Assembly (NCBI GenBank): GCA_944385035.1
Contig: CALWVV010000005.1
Span: forward strand, 62,001 to 126,000
Direction: 5' to 3'
DNA length: 64,000 nucleotides
Source: an uncultured Oscillospiraceae bacterium
Lineage (GTDB): Bacteria; Bacillota; Clostridia; Oscillospirales; Oscillospiraceae
The number at the start of each line of letters is the position of its first letter. Position 1 is the stretch's first letter. Both the position numbers and the translations under genes were made by a program. Below the pieces are notes generated by a model. That model searched no databases. It saw nothing but the letters and a program-made list of their open reading frames with translations, and was not told the DNA's origin. Of the stretch, positions 7,945-53,176 are shown piece after piece.

Positions 7945-7988
7945 AGTGCGAGTCCTTTCTATGTCGGTCAGTCAGATGGTGCTTCTCC

Positions 7989-8018: not shown

Positions 8019-8039
8019 CCGTTTTTTCCTGGAAAATAC

Positions 8040-8087: not shown

Positions 8088-8092
8088 GGAGG

Positions 8093-9079: not shown

Positions 9080-9143
9080 AAAACCTTCCTCCTTTTCCCA
9101 TTTCCTTCAGCTTAGCAGGAGAGCTGTCCCATAAACTGTACTT

Positions 9144-9691: not shown

Positions 9692-9831
9692 AACCATTCC
9701 TCCTGAGGCAGTTCTGCACTGTTTTTTAATCAAAGTTGAGAAAAGTATACCATAGTTTGTCCTTCGGAACAAGTGACACGGCGGGAATGAAGGTCCATGT
9801 CCGGTGCCATACTATTGAAAAATCAGAAAGG

Positions 9832-12204: not shown

Positions 12205-12584
12205 CACATTTGTTCTCGAGAAAGCGATAGTATACTTTTGCGGGAAAGTGTGGTATACTAAACTGACAATGATTGGTTTATACGCGAAGGGGCCGGGCAA
12301 AAGGCCCGCCCCCGCGTTTAAATATTTTCCGGGCACCAGAACCGTAGAGAACAGGCGGGGACGGACCTGGGCACAAGAGGACAGAGAACACCAGGGCGAA
12401 GGGGGCAGCCGCTCCATCCGGCGAGGCAGGGCCGGGAGGGAGGGCAGTCCTTCGTCTTGCCGCTGTGCGATCGGCACAGCGCTTTTGTCATGGGTTTTTC
12501 TGTCCGAGTACATCAAAAGGTCCCGGCCGCAAAAACTGCGAGCCAGCGGACAAGGATTGTGAAATGGAAAAATAAGGAGTTATT
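12205..12584 (+). promoter_or_regulatory. Long leader of the RNase J gene with promoter and hairpin
   Basis: 380 bases without a gene. An extended -10 (TGGTATACT, 12251-12259) marks a likely promoter, with a second TATACT at 12231-12236 and no good -35 for either. The transcript would carry a leader of over 300 bases rich in purines. A GCTGTGC/GCACAGC hairpin (12462-12468 with 12474-12480) followed by GCTTTTG, 100 bases before the start codon, resembles a weak terminator or a processing site. RNase J and RNase E genes are often self-regulated through their leaders, so a control element here is plausible but unproven. Confidence 0.5.
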
Positions 12585-14243: not shown

Positions 14244-14252
14244 GAAAAAGAG

Positions 14253-14290
14253 AAGCCCCTGCCTTTGAGAGGGATCAAAGGCAGGGGCTT
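14253..14290. terminator. Bidirectional terminator between rnj and ilvD
   Basis: A perfect 16-bp stem (14253-14268 with 14275-14290) with a purine-rich A-run on one side and GTTTA on the other, serving convergent rnj and ilvD. Confidence 0.88.
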
Positions 14291-14366
14291 GTTTATGTCC
14301 TCATGCTGCCTGGGATATTGGCACAGAGGAAAGAAGAGAGAGGGGGCGTATGAAAAACTGCGGCGC

Positions 14367-16028
14367 TTATTCCAAAATGGCGCCCTTATCAGCGGAGGAG
14401 ACCAGCTTGGCGTACCGGGCCAGATAGCCGGTTTTGATCTTGGGCTCGGGGCAGACCCACCGGGCCCTACGGTCAGCCAAAACGGCCTCGTCCACGTTCA
14501 GTGTGATGGAGTGGTTGGGAATGTCAATGGCGATGAGGTCGCCCTCCTCCACCAGGCCGATGGGGCCGCCGGAGGCCGCCTCCGGGGAGACGTGGCCGAT
14601 GGAGGCACCGCGGGTGGCGCCGGAGAAGCGGCCGTCGGTAATCAGGGCCACGTCCTTGTCCAGGCCCATGCCTGCAATGGCGGAGGTGGGGTTGAGCATC
14701 TCCCGCATGCCGGGGCCGCCCTTGGGGCCCTCGTAGCGGATGACCACCACGTCGCCGGCCACGATCTTGCCGGCATAGATGGCCTCGATGGCCTCATCCT
14801 CAGAGTTGAAGACCCGTGCGGGGCCCTGGTGGACCATCATCTCGGGAGCCACGGCAGACTGCTTTACTACACAGCCGTTGGGGGCCAGGTTGCCTTTCAG
14901 AACGGCGATGCCGCCGGTCTTGGAGTAGGGATTGTCAATGGGACGGATGATCTCCGGGTTGCGGTTCACCGCCCCAGCCAGGTTTTCTGCCACCGTCTTG
15001 CCGGTACAGGTCATGAGGCTGGTGTCCAGCAGGCCGGCCTTGGCAAGCTCGGCCATGACGGCGTACACGCCGCCCGCCCGGTCCAGATCCTCCATGTAGG
15101 TGTCCCCGGCGGGAGCCAGGTGGCAAAGGTTGGGGGTCTTTTCCGAGATTTCGTTGGCCATGTCGAAGGAGAGCTCGATGCCGCACTCGTGGGCGATGGC
15201 AGGCAGGTGGAGCATGGTATTGGTGGAGCAGCCCAGGGCCATGTCAATGGTCTCGGCGTTGTGGAAGGCAGCCTGGGTCATAATGTCCCGTGGACGGATA
15301 TTCTTTTCTACCAGCTCCATGATCTGCATGCCCGCGTGCTTGGCCAGGCGCAGCCGGGCGGAGTAGACAGCGGGGATGGTGCCGTTGCCGGGGAGGCCCA
15401 TGCCGATGGCCTCGGTGAGGCAGTTCATGGAATTAGCGGTGTACATGCCCGAACAGGAGCCGCAGGTGGGACAGGCGTTCTGCTCATATTCCTCCACACC
15501 CGCCTCGTCCAGCTTGCCGGCGTAGTAGGCACCTACCGCCTCAAACATGTGGCTGAGGCAGGTGCGCCGGCCGTTATTCAGGGTGCCGGCCATCATGGGG
15601 CCGCCGGAGACAAAGATGGTGGGGATGTTCACCCGTGCGGCGGCCATGAGCAGACCGGGGACGTTCTTGTCGCAGTTGGGGATCATCACCAGGCCGTCAA
15701 ACTGGTGGGCCATGGCCATGGCTTCCGTGGAGTCGGCAATGAGGTCGCGGGTGACCAGGGAATACTTCATACCCACGTGGCCCATGGCAATGCCATCACA
15801 CACGGCGATGGCGGGAAACTCCACGGGAGTGCCGCCGGCGGCGCGGATGCCGGCCTTGACCGCCTGGGCAATCTTGTCCAGGCTCATGTGGCCGGGGACA
15901 ATTTCGTTGTAGGAGCATACCACGCCAATGAGAGGGCGCTCCAGTTCCTCCTTGGTGTAGCCCAGGGCATAGAGCAGGGAGCGGTTGGGGGCCGCGGGGA
16001 CGCCTTTTTTTACAACATCCGAACGCAT
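14367..16028 (-). CDS. ilvD: Dihydroxy-acid dehydratase
   Basis: 553 residues, the full length of the IlvD/Edd family. The enzyme dehydrates 2,3-dihydroxyisovalerate and 2,3-dihydroxy-3-methylvalerate to the keto acids for valine, leucine and isoleucine. Fe-S ligands are visible in PNCDKNVPG and [26 protein letters not shown] and [20 protein letters not shown] are family signatures. ATG 16028 follows CAGGAGG. It is separated from the T-box ilv operon and is transcribed divergently from a FadR-type regulator whose intergenic region has repeated TGTCTGA motifs, so it is probably controlled apart from ilvBNC. Confidence 0.97.
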
Positions 16029-16057
16029 GGGGATGACCTCCTGAAACTAGTAAGAGT

Positions 16058-16116
16058 TGTCTGATTACTCTTGAAATGTCTGACCTTATGCTATATCATA
16101 ATATTACAAATGTCAA
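16058..16116. promoter_or_regulatory. Divergent ilvD / FadR-type regulator promoter region with TGTCTGA repeats
   Basis: For the regulator, TTGAAA (16071-16076), 17 bases and TATCAT (16094-16099) form a plus-strand promoter. For ilvD, TTGACA on the minus strand (16116-16111) faces weak -10 candidates TATAGC or TAGCAT near 16088-16095. TGTCTGA occurs at 16058-16064 and 16077-16083, 19 bases apart; the second lies in the regulator's promoter spacer. These are candidate operators for the adjacent GntR/FadR protein. Confidence 0.55.
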
Positions 16117-16130
16117 GGGGGAGAAGACCC

Positions 16131-16805
16131 ATGCGGGGAAATTTATCCCGCCAGACGGCGGAAACATTGTATCGGATCATCGTGGCCGAGGGACGGGTAG
16201 GCCCTGGGGACAAGCTGCCCAACGAGCTGGAGCTGTCCCGAGAACTGGGTGTGAGCCGGGCTACCCTCCGGGAGGCTATTCAGGCCCTGACTATGCAGGG
16301 GGTGCTGGAGGTCCACCGGGGCCGGGGGACCTTTGTCTCCCGGCAGGTGGGGGAGTTGGAGGACTTTGGTTTTCGCACCCTGGACGGGGTGCGGGGAAAG
16401 CTGCGGGATCTGTTTGAGCTCCGTGCTATGTTCGAACCTGGGGTAGCGGCCCTGGCCTGTGCTCGGGCCAGCCGGGAGGAGCTGACGGAGATCCTGTCTC
16501 TGGGAAAGGATGTGGAGGACTGCATCCGTTCCGGTCGGGACCGGACCCAGGCCGACCGGGACTTTCACGCCGCCATCGTCCGGGCCACCCATAACGAGTT
16601 TATGATGCGTCTGCTGCCCATCATCGGCCAGGCGGTGGAGACGGCCATTGTCTCCGGAGAGCACGGGGATAAGCTGGCCCAGGATACTCTGCGGGATCAC
16701 GCCCTGCTGATGGAATTTTTTGAAAAGCGGGACCCGGCCGGGGCGGAGCACGCCATGGCCATCCATATGCTCCACGCTATGGAGGAAATGGGCTTGGAGA
16801 AATAG
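16131..16805 (+). CDS. FadR/GntR family transcriptional regulator
   Basis: 224 residues. The N-terminal winged helix (about 8-72) has the GntR signature LPNELELSRELGVSRATLREAIQALTMQGVLEVHRGRGTFV in two overlapping blocks. The C-terminal FCD helical ligand-binding domain (about 85-215) shows the metal and acid-binding D...H...H pattern (DRDFHAAIVRATHN, DHALLMEFF, AEHAMAIHML). FadR-subgroup proteins sense small carboxylic acids. ATG 16131 follows AAGGGGGAG at good spacing; upstream ATGs lie in the promoter. Being divergent from ilvD, it may sense a branched-chain intermediate, which is inference. Confidence 0.9.
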   Translation: MRGNLSRQTAETLYRIIVAEGRVGPGDKLPNELELSRELGVSRATLREAIQALTMQGVLEVHRGRGTFVSRQVGELEDFGFRTLDGVRGKLRDLFELRAMFEPGVAALACARASREELTEILSLGKDVEDCIRSGRDRTQADRDFHAAIVRATHNEFMMRLLPIIGQAVETAIVSGEHGDKLAQDTLRDHALLMEFFEKRDPAGAEHAMAIHMLHAMEEMGLEK

Positions 16806-16808
16806 TCG

Positions 16809-16845
16809 AAGGCGGTGGGATTTTTTCCTACCGCCTTGCTTTTTT
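16809..16845 (+). terminator. Terminator of the FadR-type regulator gene
   Basis: An AAGGCGGT...ACCGCCTT stem with a T-rich loop, followed by GCTTTTTTT. Confidence 0.85.
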
Positions 16846-16915
16846 TCCGTTGTCCGTTTATACTTAGTTTAGAAAACGGCGTGTCCTTCCAGGCACGTTT
16901 TTATGGAGGTTATCT

Positions 16916-17206
16916 ATGGCTTACTGTAAACGATGTGGAGCTCCCATCAGCGATCAGGCAATGGTCTGCCCCTCCTGCGGCGAGCCGCAGTACTCGGTGC
17001 CTCCGGTTCAGGACAATGGAGGCCTCGGATGGGGCCTGCTGGGCTGCTGTATCCCCGTTGCCGGACTGGTGCTGTACCTGGTGTGGAAGGATCAGAAACC
17101 GAAAACGGCTAAGGCGGCGGGCATCGGCGCACTGGTGGCGGTGGGCTTGTCCGCGTTCTGGTACTTCGTTGCTCTGGTTGGCGGAATCAGCTTTGCCCTG
17201 TTTTGA
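16916..17206 (+). CDS. Zinc-ribbon membrane protein
   Basis: 96 residues. Two CxxC pairs (YCKRCG, VCPSCG) form an N-terminal zinc ribbon (residues 4-23), followed by a Pro/Gln linker and two predicted membrane helices (about 37-54 and 68-94). Its function is unknown. ATG 16916 follows ATGGAGG. Its stop overlaps the TTG start of the next gene (TTGA), so the two are probably co-translated. Confidence 0.8.
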   Translation: MAYCKRCGAPISDQAMVCPSCGEPQYSVPPVQDNGGLGWGLLGCCIPVAGLVLYLVWKDQKPKTAKAAGIGALVAVGLSAFWYFVALVGGISFALF

Positions 17207-17568
17207 GGGCCTGGCTTTATAAGTGGCTGCCCATTGTATTCGGGTGCCATGGTCTGGACAGCCGGAGCTTTCATTACAAGGGACAAAAATTTCCCCTGTG
17301 CGCCCGGTGTACCGGAGAACTCTTAGGGATTTTTGCGGCTTTGGGCAGCGTTGCCTTTGTCCGCCCGCCCCTCTGGGGACTGTTGGTGCTGATGGTGCCT
17401 ATGGTGCTGGATGGGGGAATTCAGATGTTCACCTCCTATGAGAGCGGAAATATCCGGCGGCTCATCACCGGTACGCTCTTTGGCTTTGCGCTGACGGATG
17501 TGTTTTTGCTCTCCACCGCGGCGGTTTTTCGCTATGGCATGGTGCTGGGAGAGCGGATGGCTGCATAA
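17203..17568 (+). CDS. DUF2085 family membrane protein
   Basis: 121 residues. The conserved DUF2085 motifs GCHGLDSRSF and FPLCARCTGELLG are clear, with three hydrophobic helices following. Its function is unknown; members often sit with zinc-ribbon proteins as here. The TTG start at 17203 overlaps the previous stop by 4 bases (TTGA), and no better start exists before the GCH motif. Confidence 0.78.
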   Translation: MRAWLYKWLPIVFGCHGLDSRSFHYKGQKFPLCARCTGELLGIFAALGSVAFVRPPLWGLLVLMVPMVLDGGIQMFTSYESGNIRRLITGTLFGFALTDVFLLSTAAVFRYGMVLGERMAA

Positions 17569-40057: not shown

Positions 40058-41683
40058 ATGCTGAACTTTGATCCAGAGCGATATTCCTATCCGTCCCGGC
40101 GCAATGTAGTGTACGGGCGCCACGGCATGGCCTGTACCTCGGTGCCCCTGGGGGCCCAGATCGGGGTAGATGTGATGAAGGCGGGGGGAAACGCCGTGGA
40201 TGCGGCGGTGGCCATGGCGGCGGCCATGCCCCTGCTGGAGCCCACAGGCAACGGCCTGGGTTCTGATTGCTTTGCCCTTGTATGGATCGAAAAGGAGAAA
40301 AAACTGTACGGGTTAAATGCCAGCGGCGTGGCCCCCATGTCCCTCAGCGCCCAGAAGGTGCGGGAGCTGGGTTTTGGGGAGATGCCCAAGGAGGGATGGC
40401 TCCCCATTATGGTGCCGGGCGCTCCCGCAGGGTGGGCGGAGCTCAACCGCCGGTTTGGAAAAAAGTCCTTGCATGAGCTCTTTGCCCCCGCCGTCTCCTA
40501 TGCACGGGAGGGGGTCCCCGTCCCGGTGAATGTGGCCAAGCAGTGGCGAAAGGACATGCGGCGCATAGAAGCGGCTATGAAGAGAAATCCGGCGCCCCAT
40601 CGCTATTGGTGGGAGTGCTTTACCAAAAATGGAGAGAGCTATGAGGCAGGGGACCTCTTCTGCTGGGAGGAGTATGCCCAGACCATGGAGGAGCTGGCCC
40701 GGACCAACTGTGAGAGCTATTACCGGGGCTCCATTATGGAGAAGATCGTAGCGTTCAGCCAGGAGACCGGGGGCTGCTTTGCACGGAAGGACTTTGAGAA
40801 CTACCGTCCCCTGTGGGTGGAGCCCATTACCACGGACTATAAGGGCTATACGGTATGTGAGATCCCGCCCAACGGCCACGGCCTCACGGTGCTGATGGCC
40901 CTGAATATCCTGCGGGGGCTGGAGCTGCCGGAGGAGAAGGAGTGCGCCGAGACCTATCATAAAATCGTGGAGGCCATTAAGCTGGCCTTTGCGGACACCA
41001 AGACCTATGTGGCCGACCCCCGGTACATGAGGATGAAAGTAGAGGACATGCTCTCCGAGCGGTACGCGGCCCAGCGCCGGGCACTGATCGGTGACAAGGC
41101 CCTGGAGCCGAAGGCGGGAGACCCCTCCTGCGGTGGGACCATCTACCTGTGTACCGCCGACCCGGAGGGAAATATGGTCTCCTTCATCCAGAGCAACTAC
41201 ACCACCTTCGGTGCGGGGGTGGCCATCCCCGGCACAGGGATCTCCCTGCAGAACCGGGGAGCTAACTTCTCCCTGGAGGAGGAGAGCGACAACTGCCTGG
41301 CGGGGGGCAAGCGCTCCTACCACACCATCATTCCCGGATTTTTGATCAAGGACGGGGAAGCGGTGGGCCCCTTTGGGGTGATGGGTGCCTTTATGCAGCC
41401 CCAGGGTCACGTGCTGGTGACCGTGAACACCCTGGACTATCACATGAATCCCCAGGACTGCCTGGACGCCCCCCGCATCCAGTGGATCGGCGGAAAGAAG
41501 ATCCAGCTGGAGGAGAGTGTGCCCGCCCACATTGCCCAAGAGCTTCAGGCCATGGGCCATGAGGTAGAGGTCATCTCGGACTCCATTGGAATGGGCCGGG
41601 GAGAGATCATCTGGCGCGCTGGCAATGGCCTTCTCATGGGGGCCACAGAGCCCAGGTGCGACGGCACCGTGGCGGCCTGGTAA
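40058..41683 (+). CDS. Gamma-glutamyltransferase family protein
   Basis: 541 residues, an Ntn-hydrolase. The large-subunit part has [35 protein letters not shown] in overlapping blocks and [15 protein letters not shown]. The expected autoprocessing threonine is Thr361 in [25 protein letters not shown]; residues near the small-subunit active site continue as [17 protein letters not shown] and [15 protein letters not shown]. No signal peptide is visible, so it is probably cytoplasmic, like YwrD, and may act on a gamma-glutamylated or amide substrate. It is 44 bases upstream of the hydroxylase genes and behind a shared promoter. ATG 40058 follows GAGAGAGG. Confidence 0.88.
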
Positions 41684-41727
41684 GAAAAACCGGAGATTTT
41701 ACAATACAAAAGGGAGCGGATTCGTTT

Positions 41728-42486
41728 ATGTATACCGCGCGTAATTATATTAAGGCCGAATCCCTGGCCCAGGCCCATGAGCTGAACCAGCGTCGGGCCA
41801 ACGCGATTATTGGCGGGGGCTGCTGGAAGCGCATGGGGGAGCGGATGTACGACACCCTCATCGACCTGTCCGGCCTGGGCCTGGACCAGATCCAGAACCG
41901 GGGGGAAGAGGCGGCTCTGGGGGCTATGGTTACCCTGCGGCAGCTGGAGACCAATTTTATGCTGGAGAAGTGCTTCAGCGGGCTGTTTCGGAAGTGTACC
42001 CAGCACATCGTAGGGGTGCAGTTTCGCAACTGTGCCACTCTGGGGGGAAGCGTCTACTCCCGCTTTGGCTTTTCCGACATCGTCACGGCCCTGCTGGCCC
42101 TCAGCTGCCAGGTGGAGCTGGCGGGGGCTGGGCGGATTCCCCTGGAGGAGTATGTGAAGCTGCCCCGTGACCGGGACGTGCTGGCCTGGGTCTTTGTGAA
42201 GAAGGACGGCCGGCCTGTGGCCTATGAGACGGCCCGGAACAGTGAGACGGACCTGCCGGTACTTACCTGTGCCCTGTCCAAGGTAGGAGAGACCTGGCGG
42301 GCGGTGGTCGGTGCCCGGCCGGGGAGCCCCCGTGTGGTGGAGGACAGCACCTGGGAGGGGTTGGAGAAGCAGGTCCTTGCTCTGGAATATGGAGACAATA
42401 TGCGAGGGAGTGCACGGTACCGCCGCCATCTGGCGGAGGTACTGCTGAAGCGCTGCAAACAGCAGCTGGAGGTGAGTGGAGTATGA
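41728..42486 (+). CDS. Xanthine dehydrogenase family protein, FAD-binding subunit
   Basis: 252 residues, the medium subunit of a molybdenum hydroxylase. The FAD-binding regions are recognisable but variant: NAIIGGGCWKRMG in place of the usual AGGTDL loop, and GVQFRNCATLGGSVYSRFGFSDIVTALLAL, the second FAD motif. The CO dehydrogenase flavoprotein C-terminal domain (about 160-250) follows. It passes electrons from the Fe-S subunit to NAD or another acceptor. ATG 41728 follows AAAGGGAG. Its stop overlaps the start of the Fe-S subunit gene by 4 bases (ATGA). Confidence 0.9.
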   Translation: MYTARNYIKAESLAQAHELNQRRANAIIGGGCWKRMGERMYDTLIDLSGLGLDQIQNRGEEAALGAMVTLRQLETNFMLEKCFSGLFRKCTQHIVGVQFRNCATLGGSVYSRFGFSDIVTALLALSCQVELAGAGRIPLEEYVKLPRDRDVLAWVFVKKDGRPVAYETARNSETDLPVLTCALSKVGETWRAVVGARPGSPRVVEDSTWEGLEKQVLALEYGDNMRGSARYRRHLAEVLLKRCKQQLEVSGV

Positions 42487-42947
42487 CCATTAAGTGGACC
42501 TTAAACGGGACAGCCCGTACCGATGAGGTGGAGGCGGATGAGACACTGCTCCACTGCCTGCGGAAGGTGGGCTGCCTGTCCGTGAAGTGCGGCTGTGAGA
42601 CCAGCGGCTGCGGCCTTTGCACCGTGTGGATGGACGGAACGCCCGTGCTGTCCTGCTCCGTCCCCGCCCCACGGGCAGAGGGCCATGCAGTCACCACCCT
42701 GGAGGGCCTTCAGGAGGAGGCGGCGGAGTTTGGCGCCTTTTTGGCCGACGAGGGAGCGGAGCAGTGCGGCTTCTGCTCGCCCGGCTTTATTATGAATGTA
42801 CTGGCCATGGTGCGGGAGCTGAAAAACCCCACCGAGGAGGAGATCCAACATTATCTCACCGGAAACCTGTGCCGCTGCTCCGGCTATCAGGGGCAGCTGC
42901 GGGCCATCCGCAAGTATCTGGCCGCGAAGGGAGGGGAGCAGAGATGA
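42483..42947 (+). CDS. (2Fe-2S)-binding subunit of the molybdenum hydroxylase
   Basis: 154 residues. Two [2Fe-2S] clusters: the plant-ferredoxin type (CGCETSGCGLCTVWMDGTPVLSC, shown here as CGCETSGCGLC plus the later Cys) in the N-terminal domain and the helical type (QCGFCSPGF ... NLCRCSGYQ) in the C-terminal domain. It relays electrons from the molybdenum centre to the flavin. It overlaps both neighbours by 4 bases, showing tight translational coupling of the three subunits. Confidence 0.94.
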   Translation: MTIKWTLNGTARTDEVEADETLLHCLRKVGCLSVKCGCETSGCGLCTVWMDGTPVLSCSVPAPRAEGHAVTTLEGLQEEAAEFGAFLADEGAEQCGFCSPGFIMNVLAMVRELKNPTEEEIQHYLTGNLCRCSGYQGQLRAIRKYLAAKGGEQR

Positions 42948-45220
42948 AAGCTGTTTCCACCGGCGTACGGAAGAAGGACGCCATGAGCCTGGTTACCGGC
43001 AAGCCGGTGTACACCGGAGATCTGGTCCCCGCAAACGCCCTGCGCTTGAAGCTGCTGCGTTCCCCCCACGCACGGGCTAACATTATCTCCATCGACACCA
43101 GCCGGGCCAAAATGGTGCCCGGCGTGGCGGCGGTGCTGACCTGGGAGGACATGCCCCAGAGCCGCTTTACCACCGCCGGCCAGACCTGGCCCGAGCCCAG
43201 CCCCTATGACCGGCTGATCCTGGACCGGCACCTGCGCTGTGCCGGGGACCCGGTGGCCATTGTGGCCGCGGAGACAGAGGAGATTGCCCGGCGGGCGGTG
43301 CGGCTCATTAAAGTGGAGTATGAGGTGCTGGAGCCCCTGCTGGACTTTACCAAGGCTCTGGACAACCCCATTGTGGTCCACCCGGAGGAGAATTTCCGCT
43401 CCCTGTGCCCGGTAGGCACCGACCCAAAGCGCAACCTGGTATCCACCGACAGCTTTACCGTGGGTGATGTGGAGGGGGAGTTTGCCAAATGTGATGTGGT
43501 GCTGGAGCGCACCTATAACACCGTGGCCAACAACCAGACCATGATGGAGCCCTTCTGCACTTATACCTATTTGGATGAGTATGGCCGGCTCAATGTGGTC
43601 AGCTCCACCCAGGTGCCTTTCCATGTGCGGCGGATCTTGTCCAATGCCCTGGAACTTCCCAAAAGCCAGATCCGGGTGGTGAAGCCCCGGATCGGCGGCG
43701 GCTTTGGCGCCAAGCAGAGCGTAGTCAGCGAGCAGTTCCCTGCCATTGTCACCAAACTCACCGGCCGTCCCGCTTACCTCTGCTACACCCGCCAGGAGTC
43801 CATGGCCAACGGCTCCCCCCGCCACCAGATGCAGGTGAAGGTCCGTATCGGCGCCGACCGGGACGGGTCCATCCGGTGTATGGACCTCTACGCCCTCTCC
43901 AACGCCGGGGCCTATGGGGACCACGGCCCCACCACCATCGGCCTGGTGGGGCACAAGTCCCTGGCCCTCTACGGAAGCCTCCGGGCCAGCCGCTTTGTCT
44001 GTGATGTGGTGTATACCAACACCATGGGGGCCGGTGCCTACCGGGGTTACGGAGCCACCCAGGGCATTTTTGCGGTGGAGTCCGCTGTCAACGAAATGGC
44101 AGCCCAGCTGGGCATGGACCCCTGTGCCATCCGGGAGAAGAATATGGTCCGCCAGGGCCAGATGATGCCCGCCTATTACGGCGAGCCCTGCAACAGCTGC
44201 ACCCTGGACAAGTGTATGGAGCGGGCCAAGGAGATGATGGGCTGGGACAAGGGGCCCACCCACTGGACGTTGCCCAACGGCCACATCCGGGGCCGGGGCG
44301 TGGCCATGGCCATGCAGGGCAGCGGCATCTCCGGCGTGGACATCGGCAGCGTGGAGGTGCGCCTCAACGACGGGGGCTTCTATACCATGCTGGTGGGCTG
44401 TACCGACATGGGCACCGGCTGCGATACCATTCTGGCCCAGATGGCCGCCGACTGCCTGGACTGCAGTGTGGACGACATTGCCGTGCGGGGAGTGGACACC
44501 GACCAGTCCCCCTATGACACCGGCTCCTACGCCTCCGCCACCACCTATGTCACCGGCGGGGCGGTGGTGAAAACCTGTGGAGAGCTGCGGGAGAAGATCC
44601 GTCTGGAGGGCGCCCGCCTGCTGGGCATCGCCCCTGAGGCTGCCCAGTTTGACGGGGAGAAGGTCTTCCTGCCCGGCACGGACAAGGTGATGACAAGGGC
44701 AGAGATCGGCTGGGCCAGCTATGAGGGGCACAGCAAGCAGCTTTCTGCCAGCCAGTCCAACTCCTCCCCCATTTCCCCGCCCCCCTTCATGGTGGGGATG
44801 GCTGAAGTGGACATCGACCCGGACACCGGAGCGGTGCGGGTGGTGGATTATGTGGGCGTGGTAGACTGCGGTACGGTGATCAACACCAACCTGGCACGGG
44901 TCCAGACCGAGGGCGGCATTGTCCAAGGCATTGGTATGGCCCTGCTGGAGAACATCCAGTATAATCCCCAGGGCCGCATGCTCAACGACTCCCTGCTCCA
45001 ATACCGCATCCCCACCCGCCTGGAGGCGGGGAAGATCCGGGTGGAGTTTGTGCCCAGCTATGAACCCACCGGACCCTTTGGCGCCAAATCCATTGGAGAA
45101 CTGGTCATCAACACCCCCAGCCCCGCCATTGCCGAGGCCATTCGGGCGGCCACGGGACACATGTTCCGTACCCTGCCCATCCGTCCGGAGGACGTGGCCC
45201 TGGCCGGCTTGGAGGAATAA
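42944..45220 (+). CDS. Xanthine dehydrogenase family protein, molybdopterin-binding subunit
   Basis: 758 residues, full length for the large subunit. The N-terminal Ald_Xan_dh domain begins GVRKKDAMSLVTGKPVYTGDL; the molybdopterin regions include RIGGGFGAKQSVVSEQ, AGAYRGYGATQGIFAVES and the C-terminal EYxPTGPFGAKSIGE segment with the catalytic glutamate (GAKSIGE). It should hydroxylate an N-heterocycle or aldehyde using water. Whether the substrate is xanthine cannot be told. The next genes for Mo import and MCD synthesis fit a bactopterin cofactor. ATG 42944 follows GGGAGGGG. Confidence 0.92.
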   Translation: MKAVSTGVRKKDAMSLVTGKPVYTGDLVPANALRLKLLRSPHARANIISIDTSRAKMVPGVAAVLTWEDMPQSRFTTAGQTWPEPSPYDRLILDRHLRCAGDPVAIVAAETEEIARRAVRLIKVEYEVLEPLLDFTKALDNPIVVHPEENFRSLCPVGTDPKRNLVSTDSFTVGDVEGEFAKCDVVLERTYNTVANNQTMMEPFCTYTYLDEYGRLNVVSSTQVPFHVRRILSNALELPKSQIRVVKPRIGGGFGAKQSVVSEQFPAIVTKLTGRPAYLCYTRQESMANGSPRHQMQVKVRIGADRDGSIRCMDLYALSNAGAYGDHGPTTIGLVGHKSLALYGSLRASRFVCDVVYTNTMGAGAYRGYGATQGIFAVESAVNEMAAQLGMDPCAIREKNMVRQGQMMPAYYGEPCNSCTLDKCMERAKEMMGWDKGPTHWTLPNGHIRGRGVAMAMQGSGISGVDIGSVEVRLNDGGFYTMLVGCTDMGTGCDTILAQMAADCLDCSVDDIAVRGVDTDQSPYDTGSYASATTYVTGGAVVKTCGELREKIRLEGARLLGIAPEAAQFDGEKVFLPGTDKVMTRAEIGWASYEGHSKQLSASQSNSSPISPPPFMVGMAEVDIDPDTGAVRVVDYVGVVDCGTVINTNLARVQTEGGIVQGIGMALLENIQYNPQGRMLNDSLLQYRIPTRLEAGKIRVEFVPSYEPTGPFGAKSIGELVINTPSPAIAEAIRAATGHMFRTLPIRPEDVALAGLEE

Positions 45221-45227
45221 AACATCC

Positions 45228-45263
45228 AAAAGCCGCATCCTGCCTTGACAGGGTGCGGCTTTT
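45228..45263 (+). terminator. Terminator after the molybdenum hydroxylase genes
   Basis: A 15-bp stem with one mismatch-type pair (45228-45242 with 45249-45263) that includes AAAA and TTTT flanks. It may be incomplete, allowing some read-through into the transporter genes. Confidence 0.8.
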
Positions 45264-45272
45264 ATGGTACCT

Positions 45273-45298
45273 TCGTTATGTTTTTTTCAGCATAACGA
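45273..45298. promoter_or_regulatory. ModE-like palindrome ahead of the molybdate-type ABC transporter
   Basis: TCGTTATG (45273-45280) and CATAACGA (45291-45298) form a perfect 8-bp inverted repeat with a 10-base spacer, resembling the CGTTAT...ATAACG arms of ModE sites. A TTGACA at 45245-45250 with a weak TACCTT at 45268-45273 could be the promoter, placing the palindrome over its -10 and start. Confidence 0.65.
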
Positions 45299-45314
45299 TA
45301 TTGGAGGAATTTTT

Positions 45315-46400
45315 ATGAAAAAGAGACTTTTGTCGATGATCCTGGCTGCCGCCATGGCCCTCTCCCTGGCGGCCTGTACCCAGAGCGGGGAGAGTTCCGG
45401 CGCCGGAGCCTCCTCTGGGAGCACGTCTTCCGCCGCCTCCCAGCAGGGAGACGGCAGCACCCAGTCTGAGGCGGCTTTCCCTGTCACCGTGACCGACGCC
45501 GCCGGGCGGGAGGCGACCATCGAGGAGGAACCCGAAAAGCTGGTCAGCGGCTACTACATCACCACTTCCATGCTCATTGCTCTGGGCCACGCGGACAAGC
45601 TGGTGGGCATTGAGGCCAAGGCGGACACCCGGCCCATCTATGCCCTGGCCGCCCCGGAGCTTCTGGAGCTGCCTTCGGTAGGCACCGCCAAGGAGTTTGA
45701 CCTGGAGGGCTGTGCCGCCCTGGAGCCGGACCTGGTGATCCTGCCCCTGAAGCTGAAGGATACCGTCCCCGCCCTGGAGGAGCTGGGCCTCACGGTGATT
45801 ACCGTCAACCCCGAGAGCCTGGAGCAGCTCAATGAGACCATTCGCCTTTTCAATGCCGCCATTGGCGATCCGGTGAAGGGCTGGGAGCTGCTGGACTATA
45901 ACCAGCAGACCCAGGAGTTTTTGGCCGAGAAGCTGGCCGATGTGGAAAGACCACGAGTCTATTTGGCGGGCAACAGCAGCTACCTGAGCACCGCCGGAGC
46001 GGCCATGTATCAGAACACCCTTCTGGAGATGGGCGGCGGGGAAAATGTGGCCGCGGAGCTGGAGGACACCTACTGGGCGGACGTGTCCTATGAGCAGCTG
46101 CTCTCCTGGAACCCGGAAGTCATCATCATGGCCTCCGATGCGGCCTATTCCAAGGACGAGCTGCTGGCCGACCCCCAGCTGCAGCAGCTGGACGCGGTGA
46201 AAAATGGCCGGGTGTACGCTATGCCCTCCGCCTTTGAGTCCTGGGACTCCCCGGTCCCCAGCGCCCTGGTGGGCAGCCGCTGGGTGGCCAGCGTCCTCCA
46301 TGGGGAGGAGTATGCCTTTGAGCAGTTCCAGGCCGATGCGGCAGATTTCTACCGGCAGTTCTACGGCGTGGAAATCGACACCCAGCTTTTGAGCTGGTAA
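45315..46400 (+). CDS. ABC transporter substrate-binding lipoprotein (FecB/MolA-like)
   Basis: 361 residues. A lipoprotein signal (MKKRLLSMILAAAMALSLAAC) with Cys21 as lipidation site is followed by a Ser/Gly/Gln linker (about 22-52), then a helical-backbone FecB/TroA-type binding domain (about 55-350; VTVTDAAGREATI, LEPDLVILPLKLKDTVPALEELGLTVITVNPESL, LSWNPEVIIMASDAAYS). Such proteins bind siderophores, cobalamin or, in the MolA subgroup, molybdate/tungstate; the neighbouring ModE-like and MocA-like genes point to the last. ATG 45315 follows TTGGAGG. Confidence 0.9.
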   Translation: MKKRLLSMILAAAMALSLAACTQSGESSGAGASSGSTSSAASQQGDGSTQSEAAFPVTVTDAAGREATIEEEPEKLVSGYYITTSMLIALGHADKLVGIEAKADTRPIYALAAPELLELPSVGTAKEFDLEGCAALEPDLVILPLKLKDTVPALEELGLTVITVNPESLEQLNETIRLFNAAIGDPVKGWELLDYNQQTQEFLAEKLADVERPRVYLAGNSSYLSTAGAAMYQNTLLEMGGGENVAAELEDTYWADVSYEQLLSWNPEVIIMASDAAYSKDELLADPQLQQLDAVKNGRVYAMPSAFESWDSPVPSALVGSRWVASVLHGEEYAFEQFQADAADFYRQFYGVEIDTQLLSW

Positions 46401-46407
46401 GGTTCCC

Positions 46408-47385
46408 ATGAGAGAGGAAAGGCGGGGCAGGGTGTGCTTCCTGGTGGCCCTGGTCCTGTTGGTGGGGGCGGCGGCCCTGTCTTTGCTGGTGGGGCGGTAT
46501 CCCATTACCTGGCAGGGGCTGTGGAGTGACCCCTATGTGGCCCATGTCTTTTTCACCCTGCGTCTGGGGCGTACCTGCATGGTGCTGCTGTCCGGATTTG
46601 CCCTGGGGGTGGCGGGCAGCGTCTATCAGACGGTGTTCCGCAATCCCCTGGCCGCTCCGGATATCATCGGGGTGGCCTCGGGCGCTTCGGCAGGGGCGGC
46701 GGCAGGAATCCTTTTCTTTGGCGGCGGCAGTGTGCTCACTGCCCTGTGGGCCTTTGGCGGGGGATTTGCGGCAGTGCTGGCCGCCCTGGCCCTGTCCGCC
46801 CTGAGCCGGGAGCGGGGGATCGCCAATCTGGTGCTCTCGGGCATTGTGGTCAATGCTCTGGCCCAGGCGGTGCTGATGCTCATGAAGCTGACCGCCGACC
46901 CGGAGAAGGAGCTGGCCTCCATCGAATTTTGGATCATGGGCAGTTTTGCCGATGTGACCATGGACAAGACGCTGGGGGCAGCTCCCTGGATTCTGATTGG
47001 TTTTGCAGGAATGTTTTTGCTGCGCCGGCAGATCCTGCTGCTGGGTTTGGAGGAGGAGGAAGCCCGCACTTTGGGGGTCCCGGTGGGGGCAGTGCGCACG
47101 GGAGTGCTGCTGCTGGCCACCTTGGTGACGGGGGCGGTGATCAGCGTCACGGGACTTATTTCCTTTGTGGGGCTGCTGGCCCCCCACACCGCCCGGCTGC
47201 TGACCCGGAGCAGCCGGTTTTCCACCACAGTCCTGTCGGGACTGTGCGGGGGCGTTTTGCTGCTGCTGGCTGATGTGCTGGCCCGGAGTGTGGGCAGCAC
47301 GGAAATCCCCATCAGCATCGTTACCTCCCTTCTGGGGGCGCCCTTCCTCTTTTGGATGATGTGCAGAGGGAGGGGAGCGCTGTGA
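46408..47385 (+). CDS. FecCD family ABC transporter permease (MolB-like)
   Basis: 325 residues with about nine to ten membrane helices. Family signatures are RLGRTCMVLLSGFALGVAGSVYQTVFRNPLAAPDIIGVASGASAGAA in overlapping blocks and VTGLISFVGLLAPHTARLL, the coupling region for the ATPase. Type II importer permease, partner of the lipoprotein 7 bases upstream. Its stop overlaps the GTG of the ATPase gene (GTGA). Confidence 0.93.
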   Translation: MREERRGRVCFLVALVLLVGAAALSLLVGRYPITWQGLWSDPYVAHVFFTLRLGRTCMVLLSGFALGVAGSVYQTVFRNPLAAPDIIGVASGASAGAAAGILFFGGGSVLTALWAFGGGFAAVLAALALSALSRERGIANLVLSGIVVNALAQAVLMLMKLTADPEKELASIEFWIMGSFADVTMDKTLGAAPWILIGFAGMFLLRRQILLLGLEEEEARTLGVPVGAVRTGVLLLATLVTGAVISVTGLISFVGLLAPHTARLLTRSSRFSTTVLSGLCGGVLLLLADVLARSVGSTEIPISIVTSLLGAPFLFWMMCRGRGAL

Positions 47386-48164
47386 AGGAACGTTTGCGGG
47401 TGGAACACCTCTGTGCCGGATATGACCGGGGGGATGTGATCCATAATATCAGCTTTTCCCTGTTCGGTGGAGAGCTGTGCGCTCTTCTGGGCGGGAACGG
47501 CTCGGGAAAAACCACGCTGCTGCGGACCATATGCACCCTGCTGCCCGGCCGGGGAGAGCTGACCCTGGCTGGGCAGCCCATAAGGACCTTCAGCCGCCGG
47601 GAACGGGCCCGGCGTATGGGCTATCTGGCCCAGGGAGGGCATATGGTCCTGTCCCTGGCTGTGCTGGATGTGGTGCTTATGGGGCTAAACCCGGAGCTGG
47701 GGCTGTTGGAAAGCCCAGGCCCGGCTCACTGCCGCCGGGCCGTGGAGGCGTTGGAGCGGGTGGGAATTGCCCATCTGGCTCCGTTGCCCTTCCAGAGCCT
47801 GAGCCAGGGGCAGAAGCAGCTGTGCCTCTTTGCCCGGACCCTGGTATGCCAGCCGGAGCTGTTGGTGCTGGATGAGCCGGACAGCGCCCTGGATTTTCCA
47901 AACCGGAGCCGCATGATGCGACTATTGAAGGCGTATCTGCAGGAAAAGGAACGGGCGGCGCTTTTGTGCAGCCATGATGTAAACTCCGCTCTGGCCCACG
48001 CCGACCGGCTGCTGCTGATGAAAGACGGGACGCTGCTTTGCGATCTGCGCCCGGAGAAGCTCCGCCGGGAGGAACTGGAGCGGGCGCTGCGGGAGGTATA
48101 CGGCCCGGTAGAGGTACTGTGCCACAAGGGACGCTTTGTGATGATCGGAGGGGAGGAGCTATGA
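47382..48164 (+). CDS. ABC transporter ATP-binding protein (MolC-like)
   Basis: 260 residues. Walker A LLGGNGSGKTTLLRTI (about 36-51), Q-loop YLAQGG, signature LSQGQKQLCLFARTL and Walker B ELLVLDEPDSALDFPN are complete. It powers the FecCD permease. GTG 47382 follows GAGGGAGGGG and overlaps the permease stop by 4 bases; its own stop overlaps the ModE-like gene start by 4 bases. Some FecE/MolC variation is visible in the signature (LSQGQ for LSGGQ), which is normal for this subgroup. Confidence 0.93.
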   Translation: MKERLRVEHLCAGYDRGDVIHNISFSLFGGELCALLGGNGSGKTTLLRTICTLLPGRGELTLAGQPIRTFSRRERARRMGYLAQGGHMVLSLAVLDVVLMGLNPELGLLESPGPAHCRRAVEALERVGIAHLAPLPFQSLSQGQKQLCLFARTLVCQPELLVLDEPDSALDFPNRSRMMRLLKAYLQEKERAALLCSHDVNSALAHADRLLLMKDGTLLCDLRPEKLRREELERALREVYGPVEVLCHKGRFVMIGGEEL

Positions 48165-48574
48165 AGCTGAGACTGACGGTCAGCTTTCAGGATGAGGCGG
48201 GGGAGCGCTTTTTTGGCGAGGGGCCCTACCGCCTTTTGCTGGGGGTAGAGGAGAAGCACAGCCTGCGTGCCGCCGCCCAGGGGATGGGGATGGCTTACAC
48301 CAAAGCCTTCCGCATCATCAAAAATGCCGAGCAGCACCTGGGCTTTTCTCTGCTGGAGCGAGCAGTGGGTGGAAAAGGAGGCGGGGGCAGTACCCTGACC
48401 CCGGAGGGAAAGGAGCTTTTGAAGCGCTATGGAGCATACCGGTTATCCTGCGATCAAATGGCTGAGCGCCTATACCAGGAGCATTTTTCAAACTTCCTCC
48501 CGGCGGCATCTTCTGATTACCGGCGGGAAGGGCCGGGGGAAGACCACTCTGCTGGAGTCACTGCTGGCGGGTGA
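48161..48574 (+). CDS. ModE N-terminal-domain-like transcriptional regulator
   Basis: 137 residues. The winged helix of the ModE/LysR type is clear (about 18-85; LLLGVEEKHSLRAAAQGMGMAYTKAFRIIKNAEQHLGFSLLERAVGGKGGGGSTLTPEGKELL in overlapping blocks). No molybdate-binding (MOP/TOBE) domain is present, so it senses the metal by another route or acts with a partner. The natural domain ends near HFSNF; the last 25 or so residues are encoded in the region that also encodes the next gene in another frame, which is unusual. ATG 48161 overlaps the ATPase stop. Confidence 0.85.
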   Translation: MKLRLTVSFQDEAGERFFGEGPYRLLLGVEEKHSLRAAAQGMGMAYTKAFRIIKNAEQHLGFSLLERAVGGKGGGGSTLTPEGKELLKRYGAYRLSCDQMAERLYQEHFSNFLPAASSDYRREGPGEDHSAGVTAGG

Positions 48575-48959
48575 GAAAATACCCGGATTGCGCAGCGGCG
48601 TGGAACGGGGAGGGGACGGCCTCCCCAAGCTGGTGTGGCTGGAGGAGCGCGGCGGCTCAGAGCGGTGTGTCATCGGCCGGCGGGGGCAAGCTTCCATGGA
48701 GCCGGTGCCGGGAGTGCTGGATACAGAGGGGACAGAGCTCGTCCGGAGGGTGCTGGCCGCGCCGGGAGAGTGGGCTGCGGTGGACGAGATCGGCTTTTTG
48801 GAGCAGTCCAGCCCCGCCTATCAGCAGGCACTGTGGAACTTGTTGGAACACAAACGGATGTTGGCCGTTCTGCGCAAGGAGGACCTCCCCTTTTTAAACC
48901 GCCTGCGGGAACGGGCGGACTGCTTTGTACTGGATTTGGACGAGGTGTGTGGGCCATGA
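48429..48959 (+). CDS. P-loop nucleoside-triphosphatase (NTPase_1/THEP1-like)
   Basis: 176 residues. Walker A LLITGGKGRGKTTLLESLL (about 28-46) and Walker B WAAVDEIGFLEQSS match the THEP1/NTPase_1 family, small P-loop NTPases often found next to molybdenum hydroxylase maturation genes; a MobB-like role in cofactor handling is possible. The ATG at 48429 lies within the ModE-like gene, giving a 146-base out-of-frame overlap; homologues usually start just before the LLITG strand, so the real start may be a later non-ATG codon, or a frameshift may have joined the two. Its stop overlaps mocA by 4 bases. Confidence 0.8.
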   Translation: MEHTGYPAIKWLSAYTRSIFQTSSRRHLLITGGKGRGKTTLLESLLAGEKIPGLRSGVERGGDGLPKLVWLEERGGSERCVIGRRGQASMEPVPGVLDTEGTELVRRVLAAPGEWAAVDEIGFLEQSSPAYQQALWNLLEHKRMLAVLRKEDLPFLNRLRERADCFVLDLDEVCGP

Positions 48960-49552
48960 AGCTGGGATGTGTGGTGCTGGCCGCAGGACAGGGAAGGCGG
49001 TTTGGTGACAATAAGCTGCTGCAGATGCTGGCCGGCCAGCCGGTGCTGGGCCATGTGCTCTCAGCCCTGCCCCGAGAGCGGTTTGAGCGGATCGCGGTGG
49101 TGGCATCCACCCAGGGAGTGGAGACACTGTGCAGCCAGCAGGGCCTTGCCTGCCTGCGTTATCCCGGCGGCCCCCAGAGTGAGAGCATTCGAAGGGGAGC
49201 CGCGGCTATGGAGGGGATGGACGGATGCCTGTTTGTCATGGGGGACCAGCCCCTGTGTGCCAGGGAGAGCATGGAGAACATGGTGGATGCGTTTCTGGCC
49301 CATCCGGAGGCGGTGATCCGTCTGGCCTGGGGGGAGACCCCGTGCAGCCCGGTGCTGTTCCCCCAAAAGTATTTCCAAAAATTCCAAAGCCTCACGGGAG
49401 AACAGGGAGGAATGTCCGTGCTAAAGGGGCTGGATGTGCCGATCCGTTTGATCCAGGCAAAGGAGGAGGCAGAGCTCTGGGATGTAGATACAAGAGCGGA
49501 GCTGGAGAAACTAGAGGCGCAGCTGGTCAAACGGCGCTTGGCCCAACCATAA
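48956..49552 (+). CDS. MocA-like molybdenum cofactor cytidylyltransferase (NTP transferase)
   Basis: 198 residues starting MKLGCVVLAAGQGRRFGDNKLL, the nucleotidyltransferase signature LAAGxGxRFGxNKL of the MocA/MobA group; LFVMGDQPLCARESM carries the metal-binding aspartate and DVDTRAELEKL is the typical C-terminal motif. MocA adds CMP to Mo-molybdopterin to give the dinucleotide cofactor used by xanthine dehydrogenase family enzymes, matching the hydroxylase upstream. Last gene of the transporter-ModE-NTPase-MocA transcript. Confidence 0.88.
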   Translation: MKLGCVVLAAGQGRRFGDNKLLQMLAGQPVLGHVLSALPRERFERIAVVASTQGVETLCSQQGLACLRYPGGPQSESIRRGAAAMEGMDGCLFVMGDQPLCARESMENMVDAFLAHPEAVIRLAWGETPCSPVLFPQKYFQKFQSLTGEQGGMSVLKGLDVPIRLIQAKEEAELWDVDTRAELEKLEAQLVKRRLAQP

Positions 49553-51562: not shown

Positions 51563-53176
51563 TTATTGCGTTGAGGCCTGGTAGGCCTTGGCGGCGGCAA
51601 GAAAGGCGCCGAAGAGAGGATGAGCCCGGTTGGGGCGGCTTTTCAGCTCCGGGTGGAACTGTACCCCCACAAACCAGGGGTGGTCAGGCAGCTCCACCAT
51701 CTCCACCAGCCGTCCGTCGGGGGACAGACCGGACAGCCGAAGCCCTGCCTGCGTGAGAAGGTCCCGATATTGGTTGTTGAACTCGTAGCGGTGGCGGTGG
51801 CGCTCCTGAATCTCCTCCGTCCCGTAGGCATGGAAGGCAAAGGTATCCGTCCCGGTGATATGACAGGGATAGGCACCCAGGCGCATGGTGCCGCCCTTTG
51901 CGGTGATCCCCCGCTGGTCGGGCATAAGGTCGATGACCGGATGGGGGGTGTCGGGAGCCAGCTCGCTGGAGTGGGCCCCCGCCAGATGGCACACATGGCG
52001 GGCAAATTCCACCACGGCCATCTGCATTCCCAGACAGATGCCCAAGAAGGGAATGCTGCATTCCCGTGCATAGCGGATGGCGGATATTTTCCCCTCGATT
52101 CCCCGGCTGCCAAAGCCTCCGGGAACCAGGATGCCGCTGACACCGGAGAGAAGCCGGGCGGCGTTTTCGTCGGTAAGCTCCTCGCTGCTGAGCCAGCGGA
52201 TGTTGACCTGCACTCCGTTTTCGATGCCAGCGTGGGCCAGGGCCTCCACCACCGACAGGTAGGCGTCGTGGAGGGAGACATACTTGCCCACCAGAGCGAT
52301 CTCCACCTGTCCGGCGGGATGTTTGGCCCGGTGGACCATGGTGGCCCACTCGGTGAGGTCGGGGGCATAGCAGACGAGCCCCAGCCGCCGCACCACCACA
52401 TCGGCCAGCCCCTCCCGCTCCAACATGAGAGGGACTTCGTAGAGAATGGGAGCGGTGAGATTGGGGATCACGTGGTCGGCAGGGATGTTGCAGAACAGGG
52501 AGATTTTTTCCCGCATCTCCTGGGAAATAGGATAGTCGCTGCGGCAGATGATCACGTCGGGCTGGATGCCCAGAGCGAGCAGCTCCTTGACGGAGTGCTG
52601 GGTGGGCTTGCTCTTCAGTTCCCCGGTGCCGGGGATGGAGACAATGAGGGAGACGTGGAGGAACATCACATTCTGCCGCCCCCGCTGGGCGGCCACCTGG
52701 CGGATGGATTCCAGGAAGGGCTGGCTCTCGATATCGCCTACGGTGCCGCCGATCTCCACAATGGCCACATCGGTGTCCGGCGTGTCCAGGGCATAGATGT
52801 TGGCTTTGATCTCGTCGGTGACGTGGGGGATGATCTGGACCGTGCCCCCCAGATAGTCTCCCGCCCGCTCGCGGCTGAGCACATCCCAGTAGATCTTGCC
52901 CGAGGAGACGGAGCTGTGGCAGGTGAGATTTTCGTCAATGAAGCGCTCATAGTGGCCCAGGTCCAGGTCGGTTTCTGCCCCGTCGTCGGTGACAAAGACC
53001 TCGCCGTGCTGATAGGGGCTCATGGTGCCTGGGTCCACGTTGAGATAGGGGTCCAGCTTCTGCACCTTCACCCGAAGTCCCCGCTGTTTGAGAAGCCGCC
53101 CCAGGGAAGCGGCGGTGATTCCCTTACCCAGACCGGATACCACACCGCCGGTGACAAAAATATATTTTGCGGCCAT
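51563..53176 (-). CDS. pyrG: CTP synthase
   Basis: 537 residues. The synthetase domain (about 1-265) begins [23 protein letters not shown] and has [37 protein letters not shown] in overlapping blocks; the glutamine amidotransferase domain (about 290-530) has the oxyanion GGFGSRG, nucleophile Cys in [12 protein letters not shown] and the His/Glu pair in [11 protein letters not shown]. It makes CTP from UTP, ATP and glutamine. Last gene of an operon with asnB and purC, 24 bases after purC. Confidence 0.97.

What the first reader, a model, noticed from the sequence alone, without database searches (positions are those of the whole stretch)
40058..49552. Molybdenum hydroxylase island with its own Mo uptake, sensing and cofactor genes, led by a gamma-glutamyltransferase-like enzyme
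Seen: GGT-like gene 44 bases ahead of three overlapping hydroxylase subunits, then FecB/FecCD/ATPase importer, ModE-like regulator, P-loop NTPase and MocA-like transferase, mostly with 4-base overlaps. Known: XDH-family enzymes need the MCD cofactor that MocA makes; MolABC importers of the FecCD type can carry molybdate or tungstate. Inferred: a self-sufficient hydroxylase system acting on a substrate linked to gamma-glutamyl or amide chemistry. Standard purine-breakdown partners (for example ygeX, ssnA, hydantoinase) are not present, so the pathway may be new.
Basis: partly seen in the sequence, partly recalled or inferred. Interest (0 to 1): 0.8.

Follow-up and report, generated by a model that had tools for sequence, protein, structure and literature searches.

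The report
Likely molybdenum-cofactor importer beside xanthine dehydrogenase
A gut bacterium carries a purine-oxidising molybdenum enzyme next to an uptake pump that may import the ready-made molybdenum cofactor, because several relatives that seem unable to make this cofactor keep both the enzyme and the pump.

Summary
All ten genes exist at the stated coordinates. The gamma-glutamyltransferase (GGT) link is local: its orthologue is in 51 of 64 genus genomes but beside the hydroxylase in only 4, the closest relatives. The hydroxylase is probably an ordinary xanthine dehydrogenase (XDH): 13 of 37 related loci also hold a xanthine permease or xanthine phosphoribosyltransferase; 3 of 53 control loci do.

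The importer is the surprise. In 197 order-wide genomes its binding protein occurs in six outside the genus; all six have XDH and none has MoaC. Of XDH genomes, 6 of 9 without MoaC have it, 0 of 20 with MoaC. In the genus, 10 XDH genomes with the importer lack MoaA, MoaC, MoeA and ModA, yet XDH is under purifying selection in the pairs tested. Such cells cannot use bare molybdate, so I propose that the importer brings in finished molybdenum cofactor and MocA adds CMP. Against: only 4 of 6 independent contrasts agree (p 0.125), the nearest characterised relative is MolA (molybdate), and six genus genomes, the window's included, have both the binding protein and biosynthesis.

The parts
41728..42486 (+). 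FAD subunit of the molybdenum hydroxylase (XDH-like)
   Evidence: PF00941 E 8e-23
42483..42947 (+). 2Fe-2S subunit
   Evidence: PF01799 and PF00111
42944..45220 (+). molybdopterin-binding large subunit, XdhA-like
   Evidence: PF02738, PF20256, PF01315; best NCBIfam model NF043082 XdhA 622 bits, below its cut-off of 780
45221..45273 (+). probable terminator hairpin of the hydroxylase operon overlapping the -35 (TTGACA) of the importer cassette
   Evidence: read from the sequence; the stem is kept with paired changes in G001 and G043; not listed by the scan
45274..45297 (+). ModE-type operator CGTTAT-N12-ATAACG, 17 bases before the ATG of the binding-protein gene
   Evidence: only match of the pattern in the window; same 24-bp layout upstream of E. 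coli modA; 0.0013 expected by base composition in the window
45315..46400 (+). substrate-binding lipoprotein of the importer (proposed Moco-binding protein)
   Evidence: PF01497; nearest solved structures 4hn9, 4ovk, then MolA 3psa; distribution
46408..47385 (+). FecCD-type permease
   Evidence: PF01032 E 2e-78
47382..48164 (+). importer ATPase (GTG start)
   Evidence: PF00005
48161..48574 (+). ModE-like DNA-binding protein without molybdate-binding domain
   Evidence: TIGR00637 59 bits, cut-off 98.5; PF00126; 40% identity over 57 aa to E. coli ModE
48429..48959 (+). P-loop NTPase of the THEP1-like NTPase_1 family
   Evidence: PF03266 E 2e-10; 8 of 8 relatives in the family
48956..49552 (+). 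MocA-like CTP:molybdopterin cytidylyltransferase
   Evidence: TIGR03310 121.5 bits, cut-off 186.45; in one open frame with the NTPase in 3 relatives

Best explanation
The island is two neighbouring units. The first is a three-subunit xanthine-dehydrogenase-type enzyme that hydroxylates purines. The second is a cofactor-acquisition cassette: a MolA/BtuF-like binding lipoprotein, a FecCD permease and an ATPase take up pterin-bound molybdenum (finished Moco, Mo-molybdopterin) from outside; the MocA-like enzyme, with the THEP1-type NTPase as partner, adds CMP to give the dinucleotide cofactor that this enzyme family needs; a ModE-type repressor acts at an operator in front of the cassette. Shown here: gene content, the operator, the linkage, and the co-occurrence of the importer with XDH in genomes without Moco biosynthesis. 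Inferred: that the ligand is Moco and not molybdate, the CMP step, repression by the ModE-like protein, and the purine substrate.
For: Order sample (197 genomes): binding-protein orthologues (425 bits or more; next best 197) in own and 6 others; the 6 are XDH+ and MoaC-. Excluding own, XDH+ genomes: 6 of 9 MoaC- have it, 0 of 20 MoaC+ (Fisher p 1.8e-4); within the same XDH clade 6 of 7 against 0 of 13. In 5 of the 6 it lies beside XDH; in G184 it is on another contig. Genus (64 genomes): 16 of 17 genomes with the binding protein have an XDH-type subunit; 10 of those 16 lack MoaA, MoaC, both MoeA forms searched and ModA, while 13 of 15 XDH genomes without the binding protein have MoaA and MoaC. 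Two of the 10 are single-contig assemblies (G011, G012). In MoaC- pairs tested, XDH has dN/dS 0.02-0.10 and no internal stop. A stand-alone cassette binding protein-FecCD-ATPase-ModE-NTPase occurs in G014, G044 and G050, with MocA next to it in G014 and G050. NTPase and MocA share one open frame in G014, G242, G184. ModE-type operator before the cassette in 6 of 7 modE-bearing loci, one-mismatch form in the seventh, in 0 of 16 loci without modE.
Against: Fisher tests ignore ancestry; on the XDH tree only 4 of 6 independent pairs support the link (0 against, 2 no difference; p 0.125). The nearest functionally characterised solved relative is MolA, a molybdate/tungstate binder. Six genus genomes with XDH and the binding protein also have MoaA and MoaC (G000, G043, G037, G039, G042, G046); in the last four the binding protein stands alone beside XDH and ModA is absent, which fits a molybdate role. 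G197 (99% complete) has XDH without MoaC and without the importer; so do G130 (92%), G076 (55%), G031 (87%) and G035 (72%). G047 has the binding protein without a detected XDH. A MoaC+ genome (G127) has a divergent relative of the importer (31-41% identity) near another XDH (L209). MoaA and MoeA were not searched in the order sample; MoaE, MoaD and MogA were searched nowhere.
Confidence: 0.52

Rival explanations
1. The importer is a MolABC-type molybdate/tungstate transporter, and genomes lacking Moco biosynthesis obtain the pterin by another, unseen route or use a divergent pathway.
For: MolA (3psa) is the best characterised match of the binding-protein profile, 125 bits against 69 for BtuF. 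ModE-type control. ModA is absent from 14 of 16 XDH genomes with the binding protein but present in 12 of 15 without it, as if one replaced the other.
Against: In 10 of those 16 genomes MoaA, MoaC and both MoeA forms searched are absent, so molybdate would have no acceptor. The window's own genome and G043 keep ModA as well.
Confidence: 0.27
2. The importer takes up something else that XDH-bearing cells need (a purine derivative, another cofactor or iron complex); its link to missing Moco genes comes from shared ancestry.
For: FecCD importers usually carry siderophores, haem or corrinoids (family knowledge). Independent contrasts are few.
Against: Relatives' loci already have a dedicated xanthine-type permease beside XDH; the ModE-type operator and MocA in the cassette point to molybdenum; six genomes in three other families (f15, f23, f26 in the tool's labels) repeat the pattern.
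Confidence: 0.13
3. One reading: a hydroxylase pathway led by the GGT-like enzyme, acting on a gamma-glutamyl or amide substrate.
For: GGT lies 44 bases upstream on the same strand with no obvious terminator between, so the two may be co-transcribed here.
Against: Adjacent in 4 of 51 GGT-bearing genus genomes; G039 and G042 have XDH and no GGT match; G012 and G011 have both, about 720 kb and 490 kb apart. pheA-GGT without XDH in L030, L031 and L068 suggests that the hydroxylase genes were inserted after GGT.
Confidence: 0.03

Closest known systems
MolABC of Haemophilus influenzae (HI1470-1472)
   Same: FecCD-type ABC importer; the binding-protein profile matches MolA (3psa) at 125 bits, ahead of BtuF and haem binders
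   Different: MolABC takes up molybdate in a bacterium described as making its own cofactor (PMC4031551, passages); here orthologues keep to XDH genomes that mostly lack Moco biosynthesis, and the cassette carries MocA, an NTPase and a ModE-type repressor
BtuCDF-type cobalamin salvage
   Same: Same transporter family; works in the proposed way: import of a finished metal cofactor, then addition of a nucleotide part in the cell (analogy, recalled)
   Different: Different ligand proposed; binding-protein similarity weak (69 bits)
E. coli xdhABC / yqeBC-mocA purine region
   Same: XDH subunits, MocA and a P-loop-like protein (YqeC) next to mocA
   Different: No importer; NTPase shows no significant profile similarity to YqeC (hhalign probability 0.5%); YgeW, YgeX, SsnA not sought in the window's genome
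E. coli ModE and the modABC operator
   Same: Operator layout CGTTAT-N12-ATAACG upstream of the binding-protein gene; HTH similarity
   Different: Regulator here lacks the molybdate-binding domain; no such operator found in the 20 kb around the genome's own modABC (L135)
Dietary Moco uptake by Caenorhabditis elegans
   Same: Precedent that a cell can use Moco made by another organism (PMC9793310, abstract and one section)
   Different: Animal; protein-bound Moco; no transporter named in the section read

Membership tests
Xanthine-oxidase-family molybdenum hydroxylase | FAD, 2Fe-2S and molybdopterin-binding domains | tested here: met
   Pfam domains in three subunits
Xanthine dehydrogenase XdhA (NCBIfam NF043082 equivalog) | score over curated cut-off | tested here: not met
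   best of the models but 622 against 780 bits; a relative (L131) 612
Xanthine dehydrogenase | activity on hypoxanthine or xanthine | not testable with these tools
   only indirect: xanthine permease and/or XPRT genes in 13 of 37 XDH regions against 3 of 53 controls; none of them in the window
MolABC molybdate importer | FecCD-type permease with MolA-like binding protein | tested here: met
   PF01032; MolA third-best solved relative
MolABC molybdate importer | binds molybdate/tungstate | not testable with these tools
   MolA site residues not at hand: the MolA structure paper is not held
MocA | NCBIfam TIGR03310 over cut-off | tested here: not met
   121.5 against 186.45 bits, but by far the best model; NTP_transf_3 domain found in the fused relatives
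ModE | ModE-type winged-helix domain | tested here: inconclusive
   TIGR00637 59 bits, E 3.5e-16, below cut-off 98.5; 40% identity over 57 aa
ModE | C-terminal molybdate-binding domain | tested here: not met
   137 aa; only HTH_1 found
Gamma-glutamyltransferase | PF01019 fold with catalytic threonine | tested here: met
   PF01019 476 bits; Thr361 at the expected maturation point by alignment to 5hft small chain; TIGR00066 equivalog cut-off not reached (311.5 against 357.85)
Oxamate amidohydrolase HpxW | closest similarity to Klebsiella HpxW (5hft, identity of this entry recalled) | tested here: not met
   2nlz 629 bits; 5hft 111 and 96 bits
Moco salvage importer (proposed) | present where a Moco enzyme is kept and Moco biosynthesis is missing | tested here: met
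   6 of 9 XDH+ MoaC- and 0 of 20 XDH+ MoaC+ genomes of the order sample, own left out; with exceptions listed in the Against line
Moco salvage importer (proposed) | transports Moco | not testable with these tools
   needs binding and uptake assays

The most novel reading that the evidence does not exclude
The first dedicated bacterial uptake system for ready-made molybdenum cofactor: gut Clostridia that have lost Moco synthesis stay able to oxidise purines by importing Moco released by neighbours and converting it to the CMP form, which would explain part of the 'orphan molybdoprotein' genomes known since 2018.
Probability: 0.48. Interest if true: 0.92.

Novelty: new variant of a known kind. 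Interest (0 to 1): 0.7.

Why it matters
A survey of almost 5900 organisms found several hundred with molybdoenzymes but no complete Moco pathway and left it open whether they use molybdenum at all (PMC6147048, passages). A 2022 paper states that uptake of exogenous Moco had not been seen outside C. elegans (PMC9793310, section 14). The present pattern gives a concrete candidate transporter, named genes, a culturable isolate (Flavonifractor sp. An100, G056) and a related solved structure (4hn9) for a direct test. If true, Moco joins cobalamin and haem as a shared cofactor in the gut, and bacterial purine and uric-acid breakdown may depend on neighbours. Ten literature searches of the open library listed no bacterial Moco or molybdopterin importer; subscription papers are mostly not held.

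Tried and rejected
GGT as part of the system: rejected on distribution. HpxW/oxamate link: the full text search for the three terms gave no paper and sequence similarity is weak. Programmed frameshift between modE and the NTPase: considered because the NTPase frame is +1 and has no canonical start near the P-loop; dropped because an ATG 66 bases upstream is kept in 7 of 7 modE-bearing loci, and a relative without modE (G184) has GTG there. NTPase as a YqeC homologue: no support. XDH as decaying genes in genomes without Moco biosynthesis: rejected for the five MoaC- pairs tested, dN/dS 0.02-0.10. The in-frame stop first counted in the FecCD stretch of G154 and G194 lies before the gene's own ATG. 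Rows dropped before counts: binding protein G032 (29% identity); two relatives of 187 and 197 bits (G186, G127); ModA hits under the cut-off (G038, G060, second hit of G033); MoeA_N hit of G054 (under cut-off); 58-aa MoeA-like piece of G045; four GGT paralogues of about 30% identity (G024, G033, G060, G062).
Full report
What is there. Ten open frames on the + strand at 40058-49552 code for a GGT-like enzyme, three subunits of a molybdenum hydroxylase, a FecB/FecCD/ATPase importer, a ModE-like DNA-binding protein, a P-loop NTPase and a MocA-like transferase. Upstream are a chorismate mutase/prephenate dehydratase gene and, on the other strand, asparaginyl-tRNA synthetase; downstream, on the other strand, a membrane protein gene and further on pyrG. 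The importer part starts after a 94-base gap with a hairpin and a 24-bp palindrome, CGTTATGTTTTTTTCAGCATAACG (45274-45297).

The GGT is a bystander. A search of 119 related genomes found GGT matches in 55, all in the genus (64 genomes with the window's own); 51 carry the orthologue (57% identity or more) and 4 only distant paralogues. An XDH-type subunit is in 31 of 64. By contig and coordinate the two are neighbours in G000, G001, G031 and G043 only. Sixteen genus GGT regions fetched from other genomes hold no hydroxylase gene; of 80 named loci from the public scan one, the partner of G031, has it. GGT neighbours seen elsewhere are unrelated genes such as methionine synthesis, dnaK or nuclease genes (named from the sequence, not searched). 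Closest solved relative is 2nlz, not HpxW.

The hydroxylase. Domains are those of the xanthine oxidase family; the best NCBIfam model is XdhA, below its cut-off. In 37 regions around orthologues (36 relatives plus the window), an NCS2 permease of the xanthine type lies in 12 and a xanthine phosphoribosyltransferase in 7 (13 regions have at least one), against 3 of 53 control regions, the 3 being Megasphaera. The window itself has neither. So a purine is the likely substrate; this is inference from context.

The importer travels with the hydroxylase. In the 16 relatives' regions of the genus plus the window, the three importer genes lie next to XDH in 9 of 17 (downstream in the window, G001, G043; upstream in G010, G011, G012, G015, G027, G056), only the binding protein in 4 (G037, G039, G042, G046) and none in 4. 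Three genomes (G014, G044, G050) have the cassette elsewhere, with ModE and NTPase genes and, in G014 and G050, MocA.

It marks genomes that cannot make the cofactor. In the genus the binding protein is in 17 of 64 (a 29%-identity hit in G032 left out), 16 of them with an XDH-type subunit (p 8e-6). Of these 16, MoaC, MoaA and a MoeA-type protein are present in 6 and absent in 10; of 15 XDH genomes without the binding protein, 13 have them (p 0.009). ModA: 2 of 16 against 12 of 15 (p 2e-4). The ten are G001, G010, G011, G012, G014, G015, G027, G044, G050 and G056; completeness 79-99%, G011 and G012 in one contig. In G014 and G050 the XDH-type subunits are of other types (30-37% identity). Exceptions: G031 (87% complete; the hydroxylase contig is cut off) and G035 (72%) have XDH but neither biosynthesis nor binding protein; G047 has the binding protein and no XDH match.

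Test outside the genus. In 197 genomes drawn from the order, 30 have the XDH-type domain and 28 have MoaC. The binding-protein profile gave 7 genomes at 425-546 bits and then a gap to 197 and 187 bits. Own genome aside, the six are XDH+ MoaC-: G122, G154, G194, G242 (one family), G204 and G184 (two more). XDH+ MoaC- genomes without it are G197 (99% complete), G130 (92%, other XDH type) and G076 (55%, other type). None of 20 XDH+ MoaC+ genomes has it. I fetched 13 of these 20 XDH regions: none shows an orthologous importer; G196 has a distant FecCD-type one (23-26%). G127 has a divergent relative (31-41%) near a second XDH. On a tree of 37 XDH subunits the label 'no MoaC, importer' needs at least 5 changes on well-supported branches; independent contrasts give 4 for, 0 against, 2 without difference, p 0.125. 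So the pattern recurs, but ancestry-corrected support is limited.

Why finished cofactor. XDH in MoaC- genomes is kept by selection: dN/dS 0.02-0.10 in five MoaC- pairs, no internal stops. The large subunit has its molybdopterin domains. A cell without MoaA, MoaC and MoeA has no use for molybdate, so the pterin, and without an insertase the metal too, must come from outside. The transporter that recurs with XDH in these genomes belongs to a family that imports large cofactors. MocA is still present, which suggests that the imported form lacks the CMP and that MocA adds it (inference). In G014, G242 and G184 MocA and the NTPase form one open frame, which ties the NTPase to the same step.

Control by ModE. 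The palindrome before the cassette is CGTTAT-N12-ATAACG in the window, G001, G043, G044 and G050, ends in ATAGCG in G014 and begins with CGTTGT in G242 (read by eye): 7 of 7 loci with a modE gene (one with a mismatch outside the search pattern), and 0 of 16 without. E. coli modA has CGTTATATTGTCGCCTACATAACG at the same kind of place; that this is the ModE operator is recalled. No such site was found in the 20 kb with the genome's own modABC. As the regulator has no molybdate domain, what it senses is unknown.

What speaks against. The binding-protein profile is closer to MolA (125 bits) than to any other solved protein of known ligand that I recognise in the list. The window's own genome and five others have both the binding protein and biosynthesis genes. 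Four of these have the binding protein without FecCD and ATPase next to it and lack ModA. Moco is oxygen-sensitive; free Moco in the gut is plausible under anaerobic conditions but not shown here. MoaE, MoaD and MogA were not searched, and in the order sample only MoaC stands for biosynthesis.

Prior work. Passages of PMC6147048 describe orphan molybdoprotein organisms and suggest new Moco components or Mo-independent forms. PMC9793310 (outline with abstract, and section 14) reports dietary Moco use in C. elegans and says uptake had not been observed in another organism. PMC9370521 (passages) covers Moco carrier proteins. PMC4031551 (passages) describes MolBC-A. PMC3423039 (passages) mentions Moco uptake only as an unrealistic model fix in E. 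coli; PMC10609526 (passages) uses 'Moco acquisition' for enzyme maturation. Other papers were seen as listings only.

Verdict. Observation sound with corrections; GGT reading rejected; hydroxylase ordinary; importer cassette a promising, testable candidate for Moco salvage.

Noticed in passing
L135 (G000:C1:290001-310000), 472-12878: Second, more distant XDH-type cluster of the same genome together with ModA and likely ModB/ModC, MoaA, MoaC, a short MoeA-like protein, a MocA-like transferase and an NhaC-type antiporter.
   Followed up: partly
window 48429-48574: NTPase gene starts inside modE in the +1 frame (146-base overlap); its ATG is kept in 7 of 7 modE-bearing loci compared.
   Followed up: yes
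L139:3802-4896, L176:10330-11406, L208:10342-11391: NTPase and MocA in one open frame in three genomes (G014, G242, G184).
   Followed up: partly
L121, L122, L123, L124: Orphan importer binding protein directly before XDH, without permease and ATPase beside it, in four genomes that have Moco biosynthesis but no ModA; unexplained.
   Followed up: no
L209 (G127:C12), 2503-17534: Divergent version of the importer and NTPase near another XDH and an NCS2 permease in a genome with MoaC.
   Followed up: no
G000:C6:23540-24721: Distant GGT paralogue (29% identity) whose matched frame holds two stop codons.
   Followed up: no
window 51563-53176; L123:17411-19015; L124:11995-13599: pyrG lies within about 6 kb of the XDH genes in the window and in G037 and G046, in a different arrangement.
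   Followed up: no
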